Source of the DNA: Pycnococcus provasolii
Taxonomy: Eukaryota > Chlorophyta > Pseudoscourfieldiophyceae > Pseudoscourfieldiales > Pycnococcaceae
NCBI GenBank assembly: GCA_938743325.2
Contig: OW568886.1
Coordinates: forward strand, 62,001 to 126,000
Direction: 5' to 3'
DNA: 64,000 nucleotides
Shown: positions 58,688 through 64,000 of the stretch, in pieces
Numbering within the stretch: the first letter of the stretch is position 1
Layout of the letters: each line of letters begins with the position of its first letter
The notes under the pieces: generated by a model
Told to the model about the DNA's origin: nothing
What the model saw: the letters and a program-made list of their open reading frames with translations, nothing else
The model's database searches: none
Program-made: the position numbers and the translations under genes

Positions 58688-59533
58688 CTACGCAACTCCA
58701 GTTCTTTCCGACGAGACGTACGTGATCGTTGATCTGCAGTGCTCGGGTATGACTTCGTGAGGTGCAAGGTTCTCCAGTTGTCTGAGGCAGTCGCCGACTT
58801 CCACTGCGTCGTCGCGTGCACCCGTAAGCTGCCTTCCTGCACGGCTATCTGACAAGGCGTCGTCGTCCTCCGCCGCACCCCCCTCTGCCGGAGCATCACC
58901 TCCTGTTGACTGCAACGGTGCCCTGTACCCAGGAACTGTCCACAGCACGTGCAACAAGAAGCTAAGCAGCGCAACGAGTGCGGCAAAGCCAAAGGCACGT
59001 GTGCACGCCTGCAACCGCCGCTGTCGGCGGTGGAACTTACCGCCGTGCAGGTATTCGGCGAGAGCGTTGCGTGTGGTAAATAGCAGCAAGTCTCCCTCGA
59101 ACGCGACGCGTGACTTACGCTCGCGTCTTGAAAAGGAGTCGCCGGCTAGCGATACTCTAGGTGCTACCGTCGTGAACAGCTCGCCGACGCGCGTGAGAAC
59201 GTCCTTCGGCCTCCACACGCGTGACGAGCGCCGACGCCTTGACGTGCTCTCACAGCCGAGTAGGATGCCCGCTTCCCGAAGCGTATCCCTGTCTCGAAGT
59301 CTCAAGTCAATCGCGCTGATTGTGAGCGTGATGTGCGACAGTGGTATGCCCAGAATTTCAGCGATGAGTCTTCTGACTTCCTTGACTTTCGTGTCGTACG
59401 TGACCCTGAGTCGAATGAGGCCGTAGTCGTCATTGATGTCCTCCGCGTACGCCTTAACTGACAGAATCAGCTCAGAGACAGGCAGCTCCCAAGACGCAAC
59501 ATCAGCCCAGGCACCTTTGGAGTCGTCCGCCAT
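58688..59533 (-). CDS. Ubiquitin-like-domain, single-pass membrane protein
   Basis: 281 residues from the ATG of MADDSKGAWADV. Residues about 20-100 read as a beta-grasp fold: LILSVKAYAEDINDDYGLIRLRVTYDTKVKEVRRLIAEILGIPLSHITLTISAIDLRLRDRDTLREAGILLGCE, with the TVxxVKxxI..xxGIP..xxxLxxxGxxLxDxxTLxxxGI spacing of ubiquitin-like domains. There is no C-terminal Gly-Gly for conjugation. One hydrophobic span (AFGFAALVALLSFLLHVLWTVPGY, about 178-201) follows a very basic segment, then an acidic tail. TMUB/HERP-type ER proteins have a similar layout, but no orthology is claimed. Confidence 0.7.
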   Translation of the reverse strand: MADDSKGAWADVASWELPVSELILSVKAYAEDINDDYGLIRLRVTYDTKVKEVRRLIAEILGIPLSHITLTISAIDLRLRDRDTLREAGILLGCESTSRRRRSSRVWRPKDVLTRVGELFTTVAPRVSLAGDSFSRRERKSRVAFEGDLLLFTTRNALAEYLHGGKFHRRQRRLQACTRAFGFAALVALLSFLLHVLWTVPGYRAPLQSTGGDAPAEGGAAEDDDALSDSRAGRQLTGARDDAVEVGDCLRQLENLAPHEVIPEHCRSTITYVSSERTGVA

Positions 59534-59598
59534 AGGCTGATAGGGGAACGAACGAACGATTGGGCCACCAGGCGAGAACACGGAGCCTGCGAAAATCC

Positions 59599-59645
59599 AA
59601 CCCCTAATCCTACTAAACAAAACTGAAGTAAATGATTAGGGGTTT
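59599..59645. promoter_or_regulatory. Paired AACCCCTAA / TTAGGGGTT elements between divergent genes
   Basis: AACCCCTAA at 59599-59607 and its inverted form ATTAGGGGTTT at 59635-59645, in the short spacer between the Ubl-domain gene (start 59533) and VPS15 (start 59801). One copy for each direction. Confidence 0.45.
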
Positions 59646-59800: not shown

Positions 59801-62800
59801 ATGGGTGCGGGTCCTTCGTCGGCATCCGCGCCTGGATCCGCGCAAACGCCGTCACAAACCTCGCTCGCCACCGGACGACTCTTCAGCGGTGTCGACGGCG
59901 CTGAGCTCATGTCCACGCAACTCCTGCGCGACATGGCACTCGCGGAAGTGCTCGGTGACGGCAGATTTCTTAAGTCGCACCTTTACCTCAGCGACGAGTA
60001 CGGACGTGTCGTTGTGCGCACGTTCCGGCGTGTGACTACGTCCGACGCCCCCACCAACAATGTGGCGTCACCAAGCGCAGACGTGGGTGTCGACTCGGAC
60101 AGCCAAGGTGACAGCAGCTGTGAGGGTACGCCAAGTACAGTGGAGGAGGCGATGGAACGAATGGTCAAACTGCACGCGCGGTGTCGCACGTGTCGCCACG
60201 TGCTTGCGCCTCTGCTTTACCAGATTTCTCCAGGAAGCGCGCGATACGTTCGACCTTACGTGCACCGCGACGTGAGGTCGAGATGTACGACGCGACCTTT
60301 CCTCACCTCACTTGAGCGTCGCTGGGTCGCCTATCAGCTCCTGAATACGCTCGCGCAGCTCGCTCGCCTTGGTGTCGTGCACGGTGATGTGACCAGCGAC
60401 AACGTTCTACTCACGAGTGACCTCTGGCTGTACATCGCGGACTTCAGCACTCCGTACAAGCCATCCGCATTGCCGGCAGACCACCCCGCGCTCTTCGCGT
60501 ACTACTTTGACTCTGGCGGCACAAGACGATGTGCAGTGGCTCCGGAGCGCTTTGTCGAGGCACCTTCGCCCTCGACGAACGGAAGCACGACCGTTACGCA
60601 CAAGTGCGACGCCTTCTCAGCGGGCTGCGTGATCGCAGAGCTTCTCATCGATGGAAAACCTCTGTTCGAGTACCACGAGCTGCTTGCGTACCGTAGGGGA
60701 ACCTTCGATCCAATGGAGAAGCTCGACCGGCAGCTTGGACCAAACGCGGAGGGCGGAGAAGCGTCGAGGTCCACCATGGCGGCTGAATTATCCGCATGGA
60801 GACGGATCATAGCTCTCCTTCTCACACGCGATCCAGAGTCACGCGGCAGCACGGCAGATGCCCTCGCCATGGGACTATCTCTCGGCCTCTTTCCCGTCGC
60901 GTTCGAAGCGGTGCATGACACCTTCGAAACCATGTCCACATCGCGTGATCCAGGTGAACGTCTCGGCATTCTGAATAGCCAGGTGGGTGGAATCATTTCG
61001 CAGGGTCTCGCAACGCCGGCTGTTTCCCGGACGAAGAAGGATGTCCATAAAGCACACGATGCCGTGGAAGGTCAACCTGAGCAGAGCACGCGGGATCGAC
61101 GCTTCTCACGAGATACTCTCGTGTCTATTGGCGCGAGTGTTGACAGCGAAGTGGACGTGGCGCGTGGAATTTCTGTAGATGGAGAAAATACGCCCAATGC
61201 CACGGCTGATGCGTCGTCTGCTGAAGGGACGGAGAATGACGGTGGTGCTGGTAGCATGGATCTCCAAAATGCAATCGATCTCCAGCATGCTCTCGCTTCC
61301 TTGTCAGTTCGGCGAGGTACGGTTTCTGAGATGGAAAAGGATGGCGCCCAACTTGCAGAGCACTATGAGATTTTGATCAACCATACGAGTGTGACGAGTG
61401 GTGATAAAACAGCCGAAAAAGTTGCATGGGTGCCCGCTGCTGCGTACGGAAAGGGGAGCGAGATGAAATCGTGTCGAGGACCTGAATGGGTCCAAGGCGC
61501 CCCCGCTCCATCGTCGGATACCATGCCGGCGATGCCTGTACCCAACGATACTCTACCGAAACGATCGACCTGGGAATGGGCAGGAGATTGGCGCGTTGAC
61601 AACACGCCCTTCGTAGACGCGGAATGCCCTCACGTAGAATGGGTATACCGCGAGTCGGGTGGATGGGCTACCGAGTGGAGTGAGCATTCACTTTGGAAAC
61701 AACGGCGCTGGGTGCGTCCGTGGCGTTTCATCAGCGAAGACGGTCCATCGCCTCGACAGTTCGCAAATTTGTGCCATCAGGCATCGACACGCACGCAGCC
61801 ATCGCCTGCCGCACACTCGCTATATGCAGTTGCGACATGCTCAGCACTCATGGGAGCGATTGCGACCAGGGACAAAATGTGCGCGCTCGAGCTTCTCGCG
61901 CACTTTGGCGAGCGCTGCGAATCCGAGGAGCTTGTTGTTCGACGCTGTGTCCCCTACGCGGTGGCATATCTTAGCGATAGCAGTGCAAGTGTTCGCGCAC
62001 TTGCGATGGGAACTCTTATGCGACTCCTCTCATCGATAAACTTTGATCCATCTCGTCTCTCCGAACGCCGTCTCTTCATTGACTACCTCTTCCCGGCGTT
62101 GGCTACGCTTTCGTCTGACGCATCGGATCTCGTGCGCGTAGAGCAAGCAAAGCGACTTGGGGAACTTGCGGCATCATTCACCTCTGGTGATCGGCAGCGT
62201 GCATCATCGCATACCTCAGAAGACAGCGGAGATGTGCCGAATGGAGGTGCGTCGCAAGATCTACGGGTGGCTTTTGTTAACCTGCTCGTTGAACTTTATA
62301 CGGGATGTGGGTCCGTACACGATGCTTCGGTGCGCCGAATGGCTCTGCCAAACGTGCTATCGCTCTGTGCGTCTCTTGGTGCGAACGAGGTGTCGAGTGC
62401 ACTACTTCCGCTCTTCATCACAACACTGAACGATCGCCCCTGGGAGTCTCGCCGTGCCTTCTTCGAGCATGCAGCGCACCTTGCAGCACCCCTTGGCATC
62501 GCGAGCGTCTCATCATTTCTTCTACCATGCATTGAGCAAGCCTTGAACCACGAACCCGTGCACGAGGTTGTCACTGCAACTTGGCAGTGTATGTCGCATC
62601 TCGTCACGAAGAATCTTTTGCGAACGAAAGTGAGCATGCACTACGCTGCCAAAGCGATCAGTCTTGCTTTTGGCCCGAAGCATGCTGTACACCACGCGTG
62701 CCTTGGCTTTCTAGCAACCCTGTGCAGACATCTGGGAACTGCTGGCACCTTTGCATTCATAGCCCCCATGCTTCCTGATCTCTGTGACTTCGGACAGCGT

Positions 62801-64000
62801 CATCCAAAACGAGGAGCAGGGGATCTTGATGCAATATCTGATCTGCAAACGCAGGAGGGGTGGGAAAGGCTTGTCGTCTCGCACATGCCTCGTGCGGAAA
62901 GACCCATCGACGATGCGGCAGCGAATGCAATGCAAAGCGACGATACAGACGAACGCCTTGAGATAACCGGCGTTCCAATCTACAGCCTTCCTTCACAGCT
63001 TGACGATTCGTCAACGCCTTTGCCGCAGAGTGCGCACAAGCGCTCCGCGTCCGACGACGTGGTTGGTGTCACGGGTCTCATAGATAAGCATGAGATAGAT
63101 CACGCTCCTTCAGTGAAAGACTTTACGGAATGGCGTGCACTTGTAGAGTCGCGTGCGACGCACACCGCAACGCGCGCCTCTGCTACAGGCACGCCTCAGC
63201 AGACCCCGCACGGCGCCTTTGGTGCGTCGACCTCACGTTTAGGTGGATTGACAGGGCCAGTGCGTGCCGCGGCGATGGGCATTGCAGGAGGTGCGGGCAT
63301 CACCTCACCTGGCGTGTCGCGCAATTCGACACTGTTTCGCCCGCGTGGGACGCTTGTCGCGAACCTCTGCGAGCATCGTCGCCGCATCAACGCGATTGCA
63401 TCTGCAACACCAGGACGTCCATCCAATGGTGTGGGGGTTGCCGCTGCATCTTTCTTCCTTTCGGCGTCCGACGACGGCACCGTTAAGGTTTGGGATGGCC
63501 GCAGGCTTGAGAAAGATCTTGCATTTGCTTCAAGGGCAACATTTGACCACGCAAGCTCGCACGAAGCGTCAGGATCCACCGCCCTACTCGCGCGTGTTCT
63601 CTGCTGCACTGTGATGGACGCGGCACGTGGCATTTGTGCAAGCGGCACAGCTGGCGGAGAATTGCGAATTTGGCACGTAGATGCAACCAACGGCCCAGCT
63701 TGGGCTTCTCGAGCATTGACGCAATTCGAGCCTGGATTTTCCTCAGCGTATACTGGACTCTATGCACCTGAACCAAAGCAACAAAATCGGTCATTGAATG
63801 GCGGCATACGGGCTCTTTTTCCCATGTCCCAAGATGTCCTGGCTTACACAACTGCACGGCACGGACTTGCTCTTCATGATGTACGCGCGCCATCGAACTC
63901 GCCTGCCATGGCATTGCCATTTGATCCAAGCGGCGGTGCGATTGAGCACATCGCGGGATTGCCCTACACGTCGGTGCCGCTCACGGCGTCATCAGATGCA
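59801..64000 (+). CDS. VPS15: VPS15 (PIK3R4) regulatory kinase subunit with inserted dysferlin-type domain; 3' end beyond window
   Basis: Open for exactly 1,400 codons from an ATG giving MGAGPSS (Gly2 suits N-myristoylation, as in all VPS15) to the window edge. VPS15 scaffolds the VPS34 PI3-kinase in endosome traffic and autophagy. The kinase-like domain shows VVVRTF (Arg73 where active kinases have Lys), VVHGDVTSDNVLLTSDLWLYIADFSTPYKPSALPADHPALFAYYFDSGGTRRCAVAPERF (HGD at 194-196; DFS at 214-216), typical VPS15 variants. Residues about 560-645 contain WEWAGDWRVDNTPFVDAE..., EWVY, and KQRRWVR, a dysferlin/peroxin (DysF) pattern not expected in VPS15. HEAT repeats follow (about 660-1030), then the start of the WD40 propeller (SASDDGTVKVWDG near 1222-1234; GTAGGELRIWHV). 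Confidence 0.92.
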   Translation, partial: MGAGPSSASAPGSAQTPSQTSLATGRLFSGVDGAELMSTQLLRDMALAEVLGDGRFLKSHLYLSDEYGRVVVRTFRRVTTSDAPTNNVASPSADVGVDSDSQGDSSCEGTPSTVEEAMERMVKLHARCRTCRHVLAPLLYQISPGSARYVRPYVHRDVRSRCTTRPFLTSLERRWVAYQLLNTLAQLARLGVVHGDVTSDNVLLTSDLWLYIADFSTPYKPSALPADHPALFAYYFDSGGTRRCAVAPERFVEAPSPSTNGSTTVTHKCDAFSAGCVIAELLIDGKPLFEYHELLAYRRGTFDPMEKLDRQLGPNAEGGEASRSTMAAELSAWRRIIALLLTRDPESRGSTADALAMGLSLGLFPVAFEAVHDTFETMSTSRDPGERLGILNSQVGGIISQGLATPAVSRTKKDVHKAHDAVEGQPEQSTRDRRFSRDTLVSIGASVDSEVDVARGISVDGENTPNATADASSAEGTENDGGAGSMDLQNAIDLQHALASLSVRRGTVSEMEKDGAQLAEHYEILINHTSVTSGDKTAEKVAWVPAAAYGKGSEMKSCRGPEWVQGAPAPSSDTMPAMPVPNDTLPKRSTWEWAGDWRVDNTPFVDAECPHVEWVYRESGGWATEWSEHSLWKQRRWVRPWRFISEDGPSPRQFANLCHQASTRTQPSPAAHSLYAVATCSALMGAIATRDKMCALELLAHFGERCESEELVVRRCVPYAVAYLSDSSASVRALAMGTLMRLLSSINFDPSRLSERRLFIDYLFPALATLSSDASDLVRVEQAKRLGELAASFTSGDRQRASSHTSEDSGDVPNGGASQDLRVAFVNLLVELYTGCGSVHDASVRRMALPNVLSLCASLGANEVSSALLPLFITTLNDRPWESRRAFFEHAAHLAAPLGIASVSSFLLPCIEQALNHEPVHEVVTATWQCMSHLVTKNLLRTKVSMHYAAKAISLAFGPKHAVHHACLGFLATLCRHLGTAGTFAFIAPMLPDLCDFGQRHPKRGAGDLDAISDLQTQEGWERLVVSHMPRAERPIDDAAANAMQSDDTDERLEITGVPIYSLPSQLDDSSTPLPQSAHKRSASDDVVGVTGLIDKHEIDHAPSVKDFTEWRALVESRATHTATRASATGTPQQTPHGAFGASTSRLGGLTGPVRAAAMGIAGGAGITSPGVSRNSTLFRPRGTLVANLCEHRRRINAIASATPGRPSNGVGVAAASFFLSASDDGTVKVWDGRRLEKDLAFASRATFDHASSHEASGSTALLARVLCCTVMDAARGICASGTAGGELRIWHVDATNGPAWASRALTQFEPGFSSAYTGLYAPEPKQQNRSLNGGIRALFPMSQDVLAYTTARHGLALHDVRAPSNSPAMALPFDPSGGAIEHIAGLPYTSVPLTASSDA

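What the first reader, a model, noticed from the sequence alone, without database searches (positions are those of the whole stretch)
61380..61760. A dysferlin/peroxin-type (DysF) domain embedded in VPS15
Between the kinase-like and HEAT parts of an uninterrupted VPS15 frame, residues about 560-645 contain STWEWAGDWRVDNTPFVDAE, then VEWVYRESGGWATEW, then WKQRRWVRPW. This follows the DysF signature (WxWxxxWxVDxx..D..GWxY...W....RRRRWVR) known from Pex30/Pex24-type peroxins and dysferlins. I know of no VPS15 with such a domain. DysF proteins act at ER-peroxisome and lipid-droplet contacts and in membrane repair, so the fusion could link PI3P production to those membranes.
Basis: partly seen in the sequence, partly recalled or inferred. 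Interest (0 to 1): 0.8.

Follow-up and report, generated by a model that had tools for sequence, protein, structure and literature searches.

The report
Dysferlin-type lipid domain inside VPS15
A core protein of the machinery that starts autophagy and endosome sorting appears, in this eukaryote of apparently green kinship and in two others, to carry an extra domain of a kind that elsewhere senses particular membrane lipids, which could steer the machinery to chosen membranes.

Summary
The frame is a real VPS15: one uninterrupted 1689-aa protein (window 59801-64000, running past the window edge), best PDB match PIK3R4/VPS15. Between kinase and HEAT lies the quoted stretch (residues 589-641, window 61565-61723). 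Alone it is a sub-threshold DysF: Pfam Pex24p 14 bits, cut-off 26.8, and with HMMER's composition correction it does not stand out. Three things make it credible. (1) Of 56 proteins matched on the VPS15 kinase region (the window's included), two more carry a DysF-like segment at this place: P0002 (plant side of the tree) and P0009 (oomycete side). In each excised segment Pex24p is the only Pfam family listed at E up to 10. (2) With composition handled by shuffling, 2 to 22 of about 20,000 shuffles reach its score. (3) Four of five fully conserved dysferlin DysF residues are kept, the fifth being R to K. The other 53 show no such segment. A 2012 table lists one of five Volvox VPS15 candidates as 'Pkinase+Pex24p', so the architecture is probably not unseen, only unremarked. 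Best reading: a divergent DysF giving the VPS34 complex a lipid-sensing membrane contact. The fold could not be predicted (tool off); the function is inference.

The parts
59801..64000 (+). VPS15 reading frame from Met1 (MGAGPSS, Gly at position 2 as in P0002, P0003, P0004 and P0011); continues past the window edge to contig position 126870, 1689 aa in all
60251..60868 (+). protein-kinase-like domain (Pfam Pkinase, residues 151-356; HGDVTSDN at 194, ADFST at 213, APERF at 247)
60869..61765 (+). expanded kinase-HEAT connector (residues 357-655); in P0002 the same connector is about 290 residues against about 14 (331-344) in human VPS15
61364..61564 (+). possible N-terminal half of the DysF domain (YE...W...EW), poorly conserved; Pfam matches only its last part (residues from about 572 on) in this protein
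61565..61723 (+). DysF core STWEWAGDWRVD...EWVY...WKQRRWVRPW, residues 589-641
61922..62173 (+). HEAT/helical solenoid match (Pfam VPS15-like_hel, residues 708-791, 26.6 bits, cut-off 27)
63449..63496 (+). first WD40 match (residues 1217-1232); the propeller continues outside the window (WD40 53.9 bits on the whole protein)

Best explanation
The VPS15 of this organism (unnamed; plant side in the tree) carries a divergent DysF domain inserted in the connector between its kinase-like domain and its HEAT solenoid. Shown: the protein is VPS15, the segment lies in its open frame, and a DysF-like segment occupies the same place in one plant-side and one oomycete-side relative. Inferred: it folds into the Trp/Arg-stacked DysF sheet, and its Trp-rich loop (GGWATEWSEHSLWK) docks on anionic lipid, most likely phosphatidic acid as for Pex30. 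This would give the VPS34-VPS15-ATG6 complex a coincidence input (DysF lipid plus the usual RAB and myristoyl contacts) that places PI3P synthesis on lipid-marked membranes such as ER contact sites or damaged vacuoles.
For: Pex24p is the only Pfam family listed at E up to 10 in each of the three excised segments: E 0.0011 (P0002), 0.002 (P0009), 0.027 (window), all on the C-terminal, DysF part of the model; full-length P0009 scores 23.5 bits, E 3.4e-5. A DysF HMM made without VPS15 rows, composition correction off, ranks P0009, P0002 and the window first of 56 linkers (45.9, 18.3, 13.3 bits; next 4.1). Summed Smith-Waterman score against four independent DysF domains is 222 versus a maximum of 188 in 3000 shuffles; against P0002 it is 66 versus 56. 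Profile comparison of window+P0002 with A3 (two other DysF domains of this genome plus P0009): P 2.9e-6, probability 88%. Linker Trp counts are 11, 11 and 7 versus 0-3 in the other 53. The distance from the core's last Arg to a HEAT motif chosen by eye is 34, 44 and 50 residues. VPS34-type C2 and ATG6 matches are in the genome. The other two DysF matches of this genome lie in frames with VASt and VPS13 domains. Pex30, Pex31 and dysferlin DysF bind phosphatidic acid liposomes (PMC12101078, passages); TECPR1 DysF binds sphingomyelin at damaged lysosomes (PMC10761082, whole text).
Against: The window protein alone is below the curated cut-off, and so are P0002 and P0009. With HMMER's composition correction the window is not set apart: 5.5 bits, inside the shuffle range; 3.6 bits and fourth of 56 linkers, behind P0035 (4.0); 2.8 bits for the whole protein against 2.3 for P0007. 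The HMM enlarged with P0002 and P0009 gives it 2.6 bits, and its whole protein is not among the eight best rows printed. Singly, 1, 39, 6 and 32 of 3000 shuffles reach its scores to L001, L002, TECPR1 and dysferlin, and 897 its score to P0009. The N-terminal half of DysF is barely recognisable. P0002 and P0009 as retrieved have no WD40 match. No other VPS15 candidate in the 2012 table, green algae and diatoms included, is listed with Pex24p. No structure prediction could be run. Lipid binding is wholly inferred; the printed Pex30 assays needed high (40%) phosphatidic acid.
Confidence: 0.58

Rival explanations
1. A true but degenerate DysF that serves only as a structural spacer or protein-interaction surface between kinase and solenoid (for example for ATG14/UVRAG-type subunits) and binds no lipid.
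For: The N-terminal half, where by my inference several of the Pex30 binding residues (R296-K304) lie, is not recognisable in the window protein; the dysferlin paper notes that the flat domain may serve protein contacts (PMC3898210, passages).
Against: The retained loop is unusually Trp-rich (W622, W626, W632), and the DysF domains of Pex30, Pex31, dysferlin and TECPR1 are reported to bind membranes or membrane lipid.
Confidence: 0.23
2. Convergent Trp/Arg-rich connector with no DysF ancestry; the motif match is chance helped by composition.
For: Composition-corrected HMM scores of the window segment lie within the shuffle range and within those of VPS15 linkers without DysF.
Against: P0009 (46.3 bits; best of 19,378 reported shuffles 17.8) and P0002 (19.7; best of 19,975, 13.3) are clear at the same place; window versus P0002 exceeds all 3000 shuffles; with the correction off, 6 of 19,992 segment and 2 of 19,994 core shuffles reach the window's score to the independent HMM, 22 of 19,997 and 2 of 19,985 for the enlarged HMM.
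Confidence: 0.13
3. Assembly, gene-model or intron artefact: the segment is not in the mature protein.
For: No transcript of this organism was available to me; codon usage does not favour the VPS15 frame in residues 621-660.
Against: In frame and stop-free, and no GTRAG donor ahead of it from 61301 on (donors further upstream or of other form were not tested); P0002, whose record name reads like a transcript assembly, keeps the segment.
Confidence: 0.05

Closest known systems
VPS15 / PIK3R4 (class III PI3K regulatory subunit)
   Same: kinase, HEAT and WD40 order; Gly at position 2; HGD, DF and APERF motifs; best PDB matches
   Different: about 300-residue kinase-HEAT connector holding a DysF-like segment; for P0002 the alignment leaves about 14 human residues there
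DysF domain of TECPR1 (8p5p)
   Same: WEW-x3-W-x-VD core with identical Trp spacing, W-x-Y, and a terminal basic-W-[VI]-R; TECPR1 also works in autophagy-related lipidation
   Different: TECPR1 has DysF1 and DysF2, tectonin propellers and a PH domain, and forms an E3 complex with ATG12-ATG5; it is not a PI3K subunit (PMC8172628 passages)
Inner DysF of dysferlin/myoferlin (4cah, 2k2o)
   Same: W992, W999, Y1014 and R1044 equivalents present; R1038 is Lys here (by-eye mapping)
   Different: in dysferlin one DysF is nested in another among C2 domains; the ENQR half is not recognisable here
Pex23/Pex30 family (Pfam Pex24p)
   Same: only Pfam family listed for the segment, on its C-terminal DysF part
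   Different: that family has N-terminal membrane segments; here the domain sits inside the VPS15 scaffold
Volvox carteri XP_002959907.1 (Pkinase+Pex24p), one of five VPS15 candidates of that alga in PMC3407069 Table 3
   Same: apparently the same kinase-DysF pairing in a green alga
   Different: 'Pex24p' occurs once in that paper's main text, in the table; another Volvox candidate carries Pkinase+WD40; sequence not examined here

Membership tests
VPS15 | kinase-like domain with HGD/APERF motifs, HEAT solenoid, WD40 propeller in one chain | tested here: met
   Pkinase 38.5 and WD40 53.9 bits over their cut-offs; VPS15-like_hel 26.6 (cut-off 27) and HEAT 21.5 (cut-off 23.5) just under; PIK3R4/VPS15 chains best in PDB, with HEAT part aligned
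VPS15 | partners VPS34 and ATG6 encoded in the same genome | tested here: met
   PI3K_C2 38.4 bits on C10; APG6 185.7 bits on C9
DysF domain | score over a curated model cut-off | tested here: not met
   Pex24p 14.0 bits (window), 18.5 (P0002 segment), 17.7 (P0009 segment) and 23.5 (P0009 full length); cut-off 26.8. The Pfam model spans 358 positions; the excised segments match only about its last third
DysF domain | fully conserved residues of the dysferlin inner DysF (W992, W999, Y1014, R1038, R1044; score 1.000 in PMC3898210 Table 3) | tested here: inconclusive
   W591, W597, Y616, K633, R639: 4 of 5 identical and one R to K, mapped by eye; P0002 keeps all five by the same reading
DysF domain | N-terminal half (YENQR...GW...) | tested here: inconclusive
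   clear in P0009 (FENSRFQPYQGW), weaker in P0002 (YEYQVRDPTNQW), only YE and later W residues in the window protein
DysF domain | two long antiparallel strands held by Arg/Trp stacks | not testable with these tools
   structure prediction unavailable
DysF domain | binding of phosphatidic acid or another lipid | not testable with these tools
   needs purified protein

The most novel reading that the evidence does not exclude
A DysF domain in the kinase-HEAT connector is an old feature of VPS15, present before the green lineage and stramenopiles diverged (or spread between them) and lost in animals, fungi, land plants and oomycetes. It would make class III PI3K a direct lipid sensor, firing where phosphatidic acid or a damage-exposed lipid appears.
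Probability: 0.2. Interest if true: 0.8.

Novelty: new variant of a known kind. Interest (0 to 1): 0.58.

Why it matters
VPS15 is a widely conserved scaffold of membrane trafficking, and where the VPS34 complex acts is thought to be set by RAB GTPases, adaptor subunits and the VPS15 myristoyl group. A built-in lipid-binding domain would add a direct membrane-identity input to PI3P synthesis. It could be tested in laboratory algae such as Volvox, if its listed candidate is confirmed. It would also tie DysF, so far linked to lysosome damage (TECPR1), ER contacts and lipid droplets (Pex30) and membrane repair (ferlins), to the enzyme complex that starts autophagy.

Tried and rejected
Regex tests: the first pattern set (56 proteins) found the WEW/WxVD core only in P0001, the basic-W-x-R pattern in P0001 and P0009 (RRRRWIR), and one irrelevant hit (KSRFLR in P0010). 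A second, post hoc pattern matched only 1 of 6 reference sequences, so its shuffle count (1 in a million) is not used. The full-length homology search (7991 candidates scored) and the DysF-region search (1 candidate) each returned only the window protein; the kinase-region search gave the 56 used here. PDB search of the bare window segment gave a bacterial adhesin (best E 0.028) and a gp184 chain, which I take for chance. PDB search of the P0009 segment gave no DysF chain, so P0009 rests on Pex24p and on the HMM built here. Scans of viral contigs and genome contigs (bacteria and archaea) with VPS15 alignment A6 found no relative; P0009 found nothing in the phage collection. An intron reading was judged unlikely. 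An ATG8-binding (AIM-like) motif as the reason for the segment was dropped: YEIL at 522 is not kept in P0002 (by eye). The tree used 24 of the 56 proteins (32 left out, 23 of them named as oomycetes and 9 unnamed), without the linker, the first 140 residues and those past residue 1000 of the window protein's numbering; the tool warns that long branches meet (window with P0003, P0002 with P0011). Trp density is less telling than Trp number: P0009 1.58%, Albugo P0056 1.44%. Pfam was run by me on only 5 of the 53 other proteins (P0003, P0011, P0035, P0055, P0056; for four of them only the best 25 families are printed), with no Pex24p in the printed rows; the precomputed Pfam lists show PF06398 for none of the 56, P0009 included. 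On re-checking I lowered the main confidence from 0.62 to 0.58 and raised the rivals slightly, because of the composition-corrected ranks and the codon-usage blocks.

Full report
What is there. The window is G000:C26:62001-126000 of a 32.3-Mb genome in 46 contigs. The + frame from window 59801 is open for 1689 codons and ends at contig position 126870, beyond the window. Pfam finds a protein kinase and WD40 over their cut-offs and a VPS15-like helical domain (26.6 bits, cut-off 27) and HEAT (21.5, cut-off 23.5) just under. The best solved structures are human PIK3R4 and yeast VPS15 (E 5.4e-64 to 1.9e-55). The genome search with this protein found one full match and one kinase-region match on C43, E 1.8e-5. 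The genome also has a VPS34-type C2 match and an ATG6 match. So the host protein is VPS15.

The quoted motif is real. The core STWEWAGDWRVDNTPFVDAECPHVEWVYRESGGWATEWSEHSLWKQRRWVRPW is residues 589-641, window 61565-61723. Over 61352-61765 there is no stop in frame and stops in both other frames, and codon-position composition is like the flanks. There is no GTRAG-type donor between 61301 and the core, only one inside it at 61680. Codon usage favours the VPS15 frame in 9 of 11 blocks of 20 codons over residues 481-700, the exceptions being 621-640 and 641-660. Alignment to human VPS15 puts the segment just before the solenoid: human residue 356 aligns with window residue 656. In P0002 the kinase and solenoid alignments leave human residues 331-344 against P0002 residues 310-601. 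The insertion therefore sits in a connector that is about 14 residues long in the human protein.

How strong is DysF? For the window protein alone, weak. Pex24p, whose last third is DysF, scores 13.9-14.0 bits (E 0.027; cut-off 26.8) on excised pieces of 138-150 aa, 11.3 bits (E 0.17) on 62 aa, and is not listed for the whole protein. An HMM built from five DysF sequences without any VPS15 (two from this genome, TECPR1, dysferlin, myoferlin) gives it 5.5 bits with HMMER's composition correction, inside the shuffle range; on that scale its linker is fourth of 56 (3.6 bits, P0035 4.0) and its whole protein third by a hair (2.8, P0007 2.3). An HMM enlarged with P0002 and P0009 gives 2.6 bits, and the whole protein is not among the eight best rows printed. 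The correction costs this Trp-rich segment about 10 bits. With it off and composition controlled by shuffling, the independent HMM gives 15.7 bits, reached by 6 of 19,992 shuffles, and 16.3 for the core, reached by 2 of 19,994; the enlarged HMM gives 13.2 (22 of 19,997) and 14.1 (2 of 19,985). Summed local alignment scores to four independent DysF domains are 222 against a shuffle maximum of 188 in 3000; singly, 1, 39, 6 and 32 of 3000 shuffles reach the scores to L001, L002, TECPR1 and dysferlin, and 897 of 3000 reach the score to P0009.

Relatives decide it. Of three homology searches, two returned only the window protein. The kinase-region search gave 56 proteins including it. I aligned all 56 and cut out the kinase-HEAT connector. 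Three connectors hold many Trp: the window's (11), P0002 (11) and P0009 (7); the other 53 have 0-3. The independent DysF HMM, correction off, ranks these three first (P0009 45.9, P0002 18.3, window 13.3, next 4.1 bits). With the correction on, P0009 and P0002 still stand clear (41.2 and 15.7) and the window does not. In excised segments of each, Pex24p is the only one of 24,736 Pfam families listed at E up to 10: E 0.0011 (P0002), 0.002 (P0009), 0.027 (window). P0009 shows the DysF pattern along its whole length (FENSRFQPYQGW ... GWKW ... GGWSVDLDWGPCDENGWVY ... RRRRWIR) with long insertions. Window and P0002 segments are alike beyond all 3000 shuffles (66 against 56), and their joint profile matches a DysF profile that includes P0009 at P 2.9e-6 (3.3e-6 with slightly longer rows; no shuffle control). 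The distance from the core's last Arg to a HEAT motif picked by eye is 34, 44 and 50 residues. Of the five residues scored 1.000 in the dysferlin paper (PMC3898210, passages), the window keeps W591, W597, Y616 and R639 and has K633 for the fifth; this mapping was made by eye. P0002 (complete frame of 990 aa by its label) and P0009 (1090 aa, from a contig of 4794 bases) have no WD40 match as retrieved; P0002's best structural match is PIK3R4 at E 5e-103.

Spread. In a tree of 24 of the 56 proteins with the connector removed, P0009 groups with oomycetes (99/97), while the window, P0002, P0003 and P0011 fall on the land-plant side (93/98, under the tool's own 95 mark; the window is a long branch and the tool warns of long branches meeting). 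P0003, P0011, and the land-plant, fungal, Taenia and oomycete proteins of the set show no such segment. A presence in one oomycete-side and two plant-side proteins fits an old domain lost many times, transfer, or two gains; three sequences cannot decide. PMC3407069 (passages with Table 3) lists Volvox carteri XP_002959907.1 as (Pkinase+Pex24p), one of five VPS15 candidates of that alga, another being Pkinase+WD40 with further domains. No other candidate in that column, from Chlorella, Chlamydomonas, Micromonas, Ostreococcus, Phaeodactylum, Thalassiosira or Monosiga, is listed with Pex24p. The word occurs once in that paper's main text, and I did not see the sequence. Searches for VPS15 with dysferlin-domain terms, Pex24p or DysF, and VPS34 with 'DysF domain' listed no paper whose title or shown abstract start is about a DysF domain in VPS15. 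The 'VPS15, DysF' search seems mostly to match 'dysfunction' (1,093 papers, 10 listed), and apart from PMC3407069 I opened none of the papers those four searches listed. The library is open-licence only.

How it may work. The DysF domains of Pex30, Pex31 and dysferlin bind liposomes with 40% phosphatidic acid, and Pex30 needs its DysF at ER contacts with peroxisomes and vacuoles (PMC12101078, passages). TECPR1's DysF domains bind sphingomyelin exposed on damaged lysosomes and recruit ATG8 conjugation (PMC10761082, whole text). The other two DysF matches found in this genome by the Pex24p search lie in a VASt-domain protein and a VPS13-type protein, both of families linked to lipid transfer (VASt and VPS13_C are so described). 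I infer that DysF in VPS15 gives the VPS34 complex a further membrane contact beside RAB binding and the VPS15 myristoyl group (both described in PMC13218723, passages), and so biases PI3P synthesis to membranes rich in the DysF ligand. The window protein's Trp-rich loop W622-W632 would be the docking surface; its lost N-terminal half argues that ligand or affinity differ. None of this was tested.

Verdict. The DysF reading is very likely right for P0009 and P0002 and likely for this member. The architecture is a new variant of VPS15, probably already present but unremarked in one 2012 table.

Noticed in passing
L006:2581-6306 (G000:C15, about 242580-246305): 1241-aa open frame with a VASt lipid-transfer domain (55.4 bits) and a C-terminal DysF (Pex24p 27.6 bits, over the cut-off), with a hydrophobic stretch between by eye: a LAM/GRAMD-like protein (recalled name) with DysF.
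   Followed up: partly
L008:2-6616 (G000:C15, about 315902-322516); open frame of 4809 aa: A VPS13-type protein with a DysF match (20.3 bits, under the cut-off) between VPS13_VAB (17.5, under) and VPS13_C (33.3, over) matches. A paper search for VPS13, DysF and algae together found none.
   Followed up: partly
L003:8131-9297 (minus strand, past the window end): One open frame joins a DEAD-box helicase fragment (29.2 bits) to a mechanosensitive-channel beta domain (43.4 bits); may be two genes with an intron or a true fusion.
   Followed up: no
window 58688-59635, minus strand: Head-to-head neighbour of VPS15; the frame (MADDSKGAWADV...) reads like a ubiquitin-like fold by eye but has no Pfam match over a cut-off (only ALGX, 13.3 bits).
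   Followed up: partly
G000:C5:434161-434463 (L011): Open frame of 1511 aa with a PRT_C match (56.5 bits), the C-terminal region known from plant multiple-C2 contact-site proteins (recalled).
   Followed up: no
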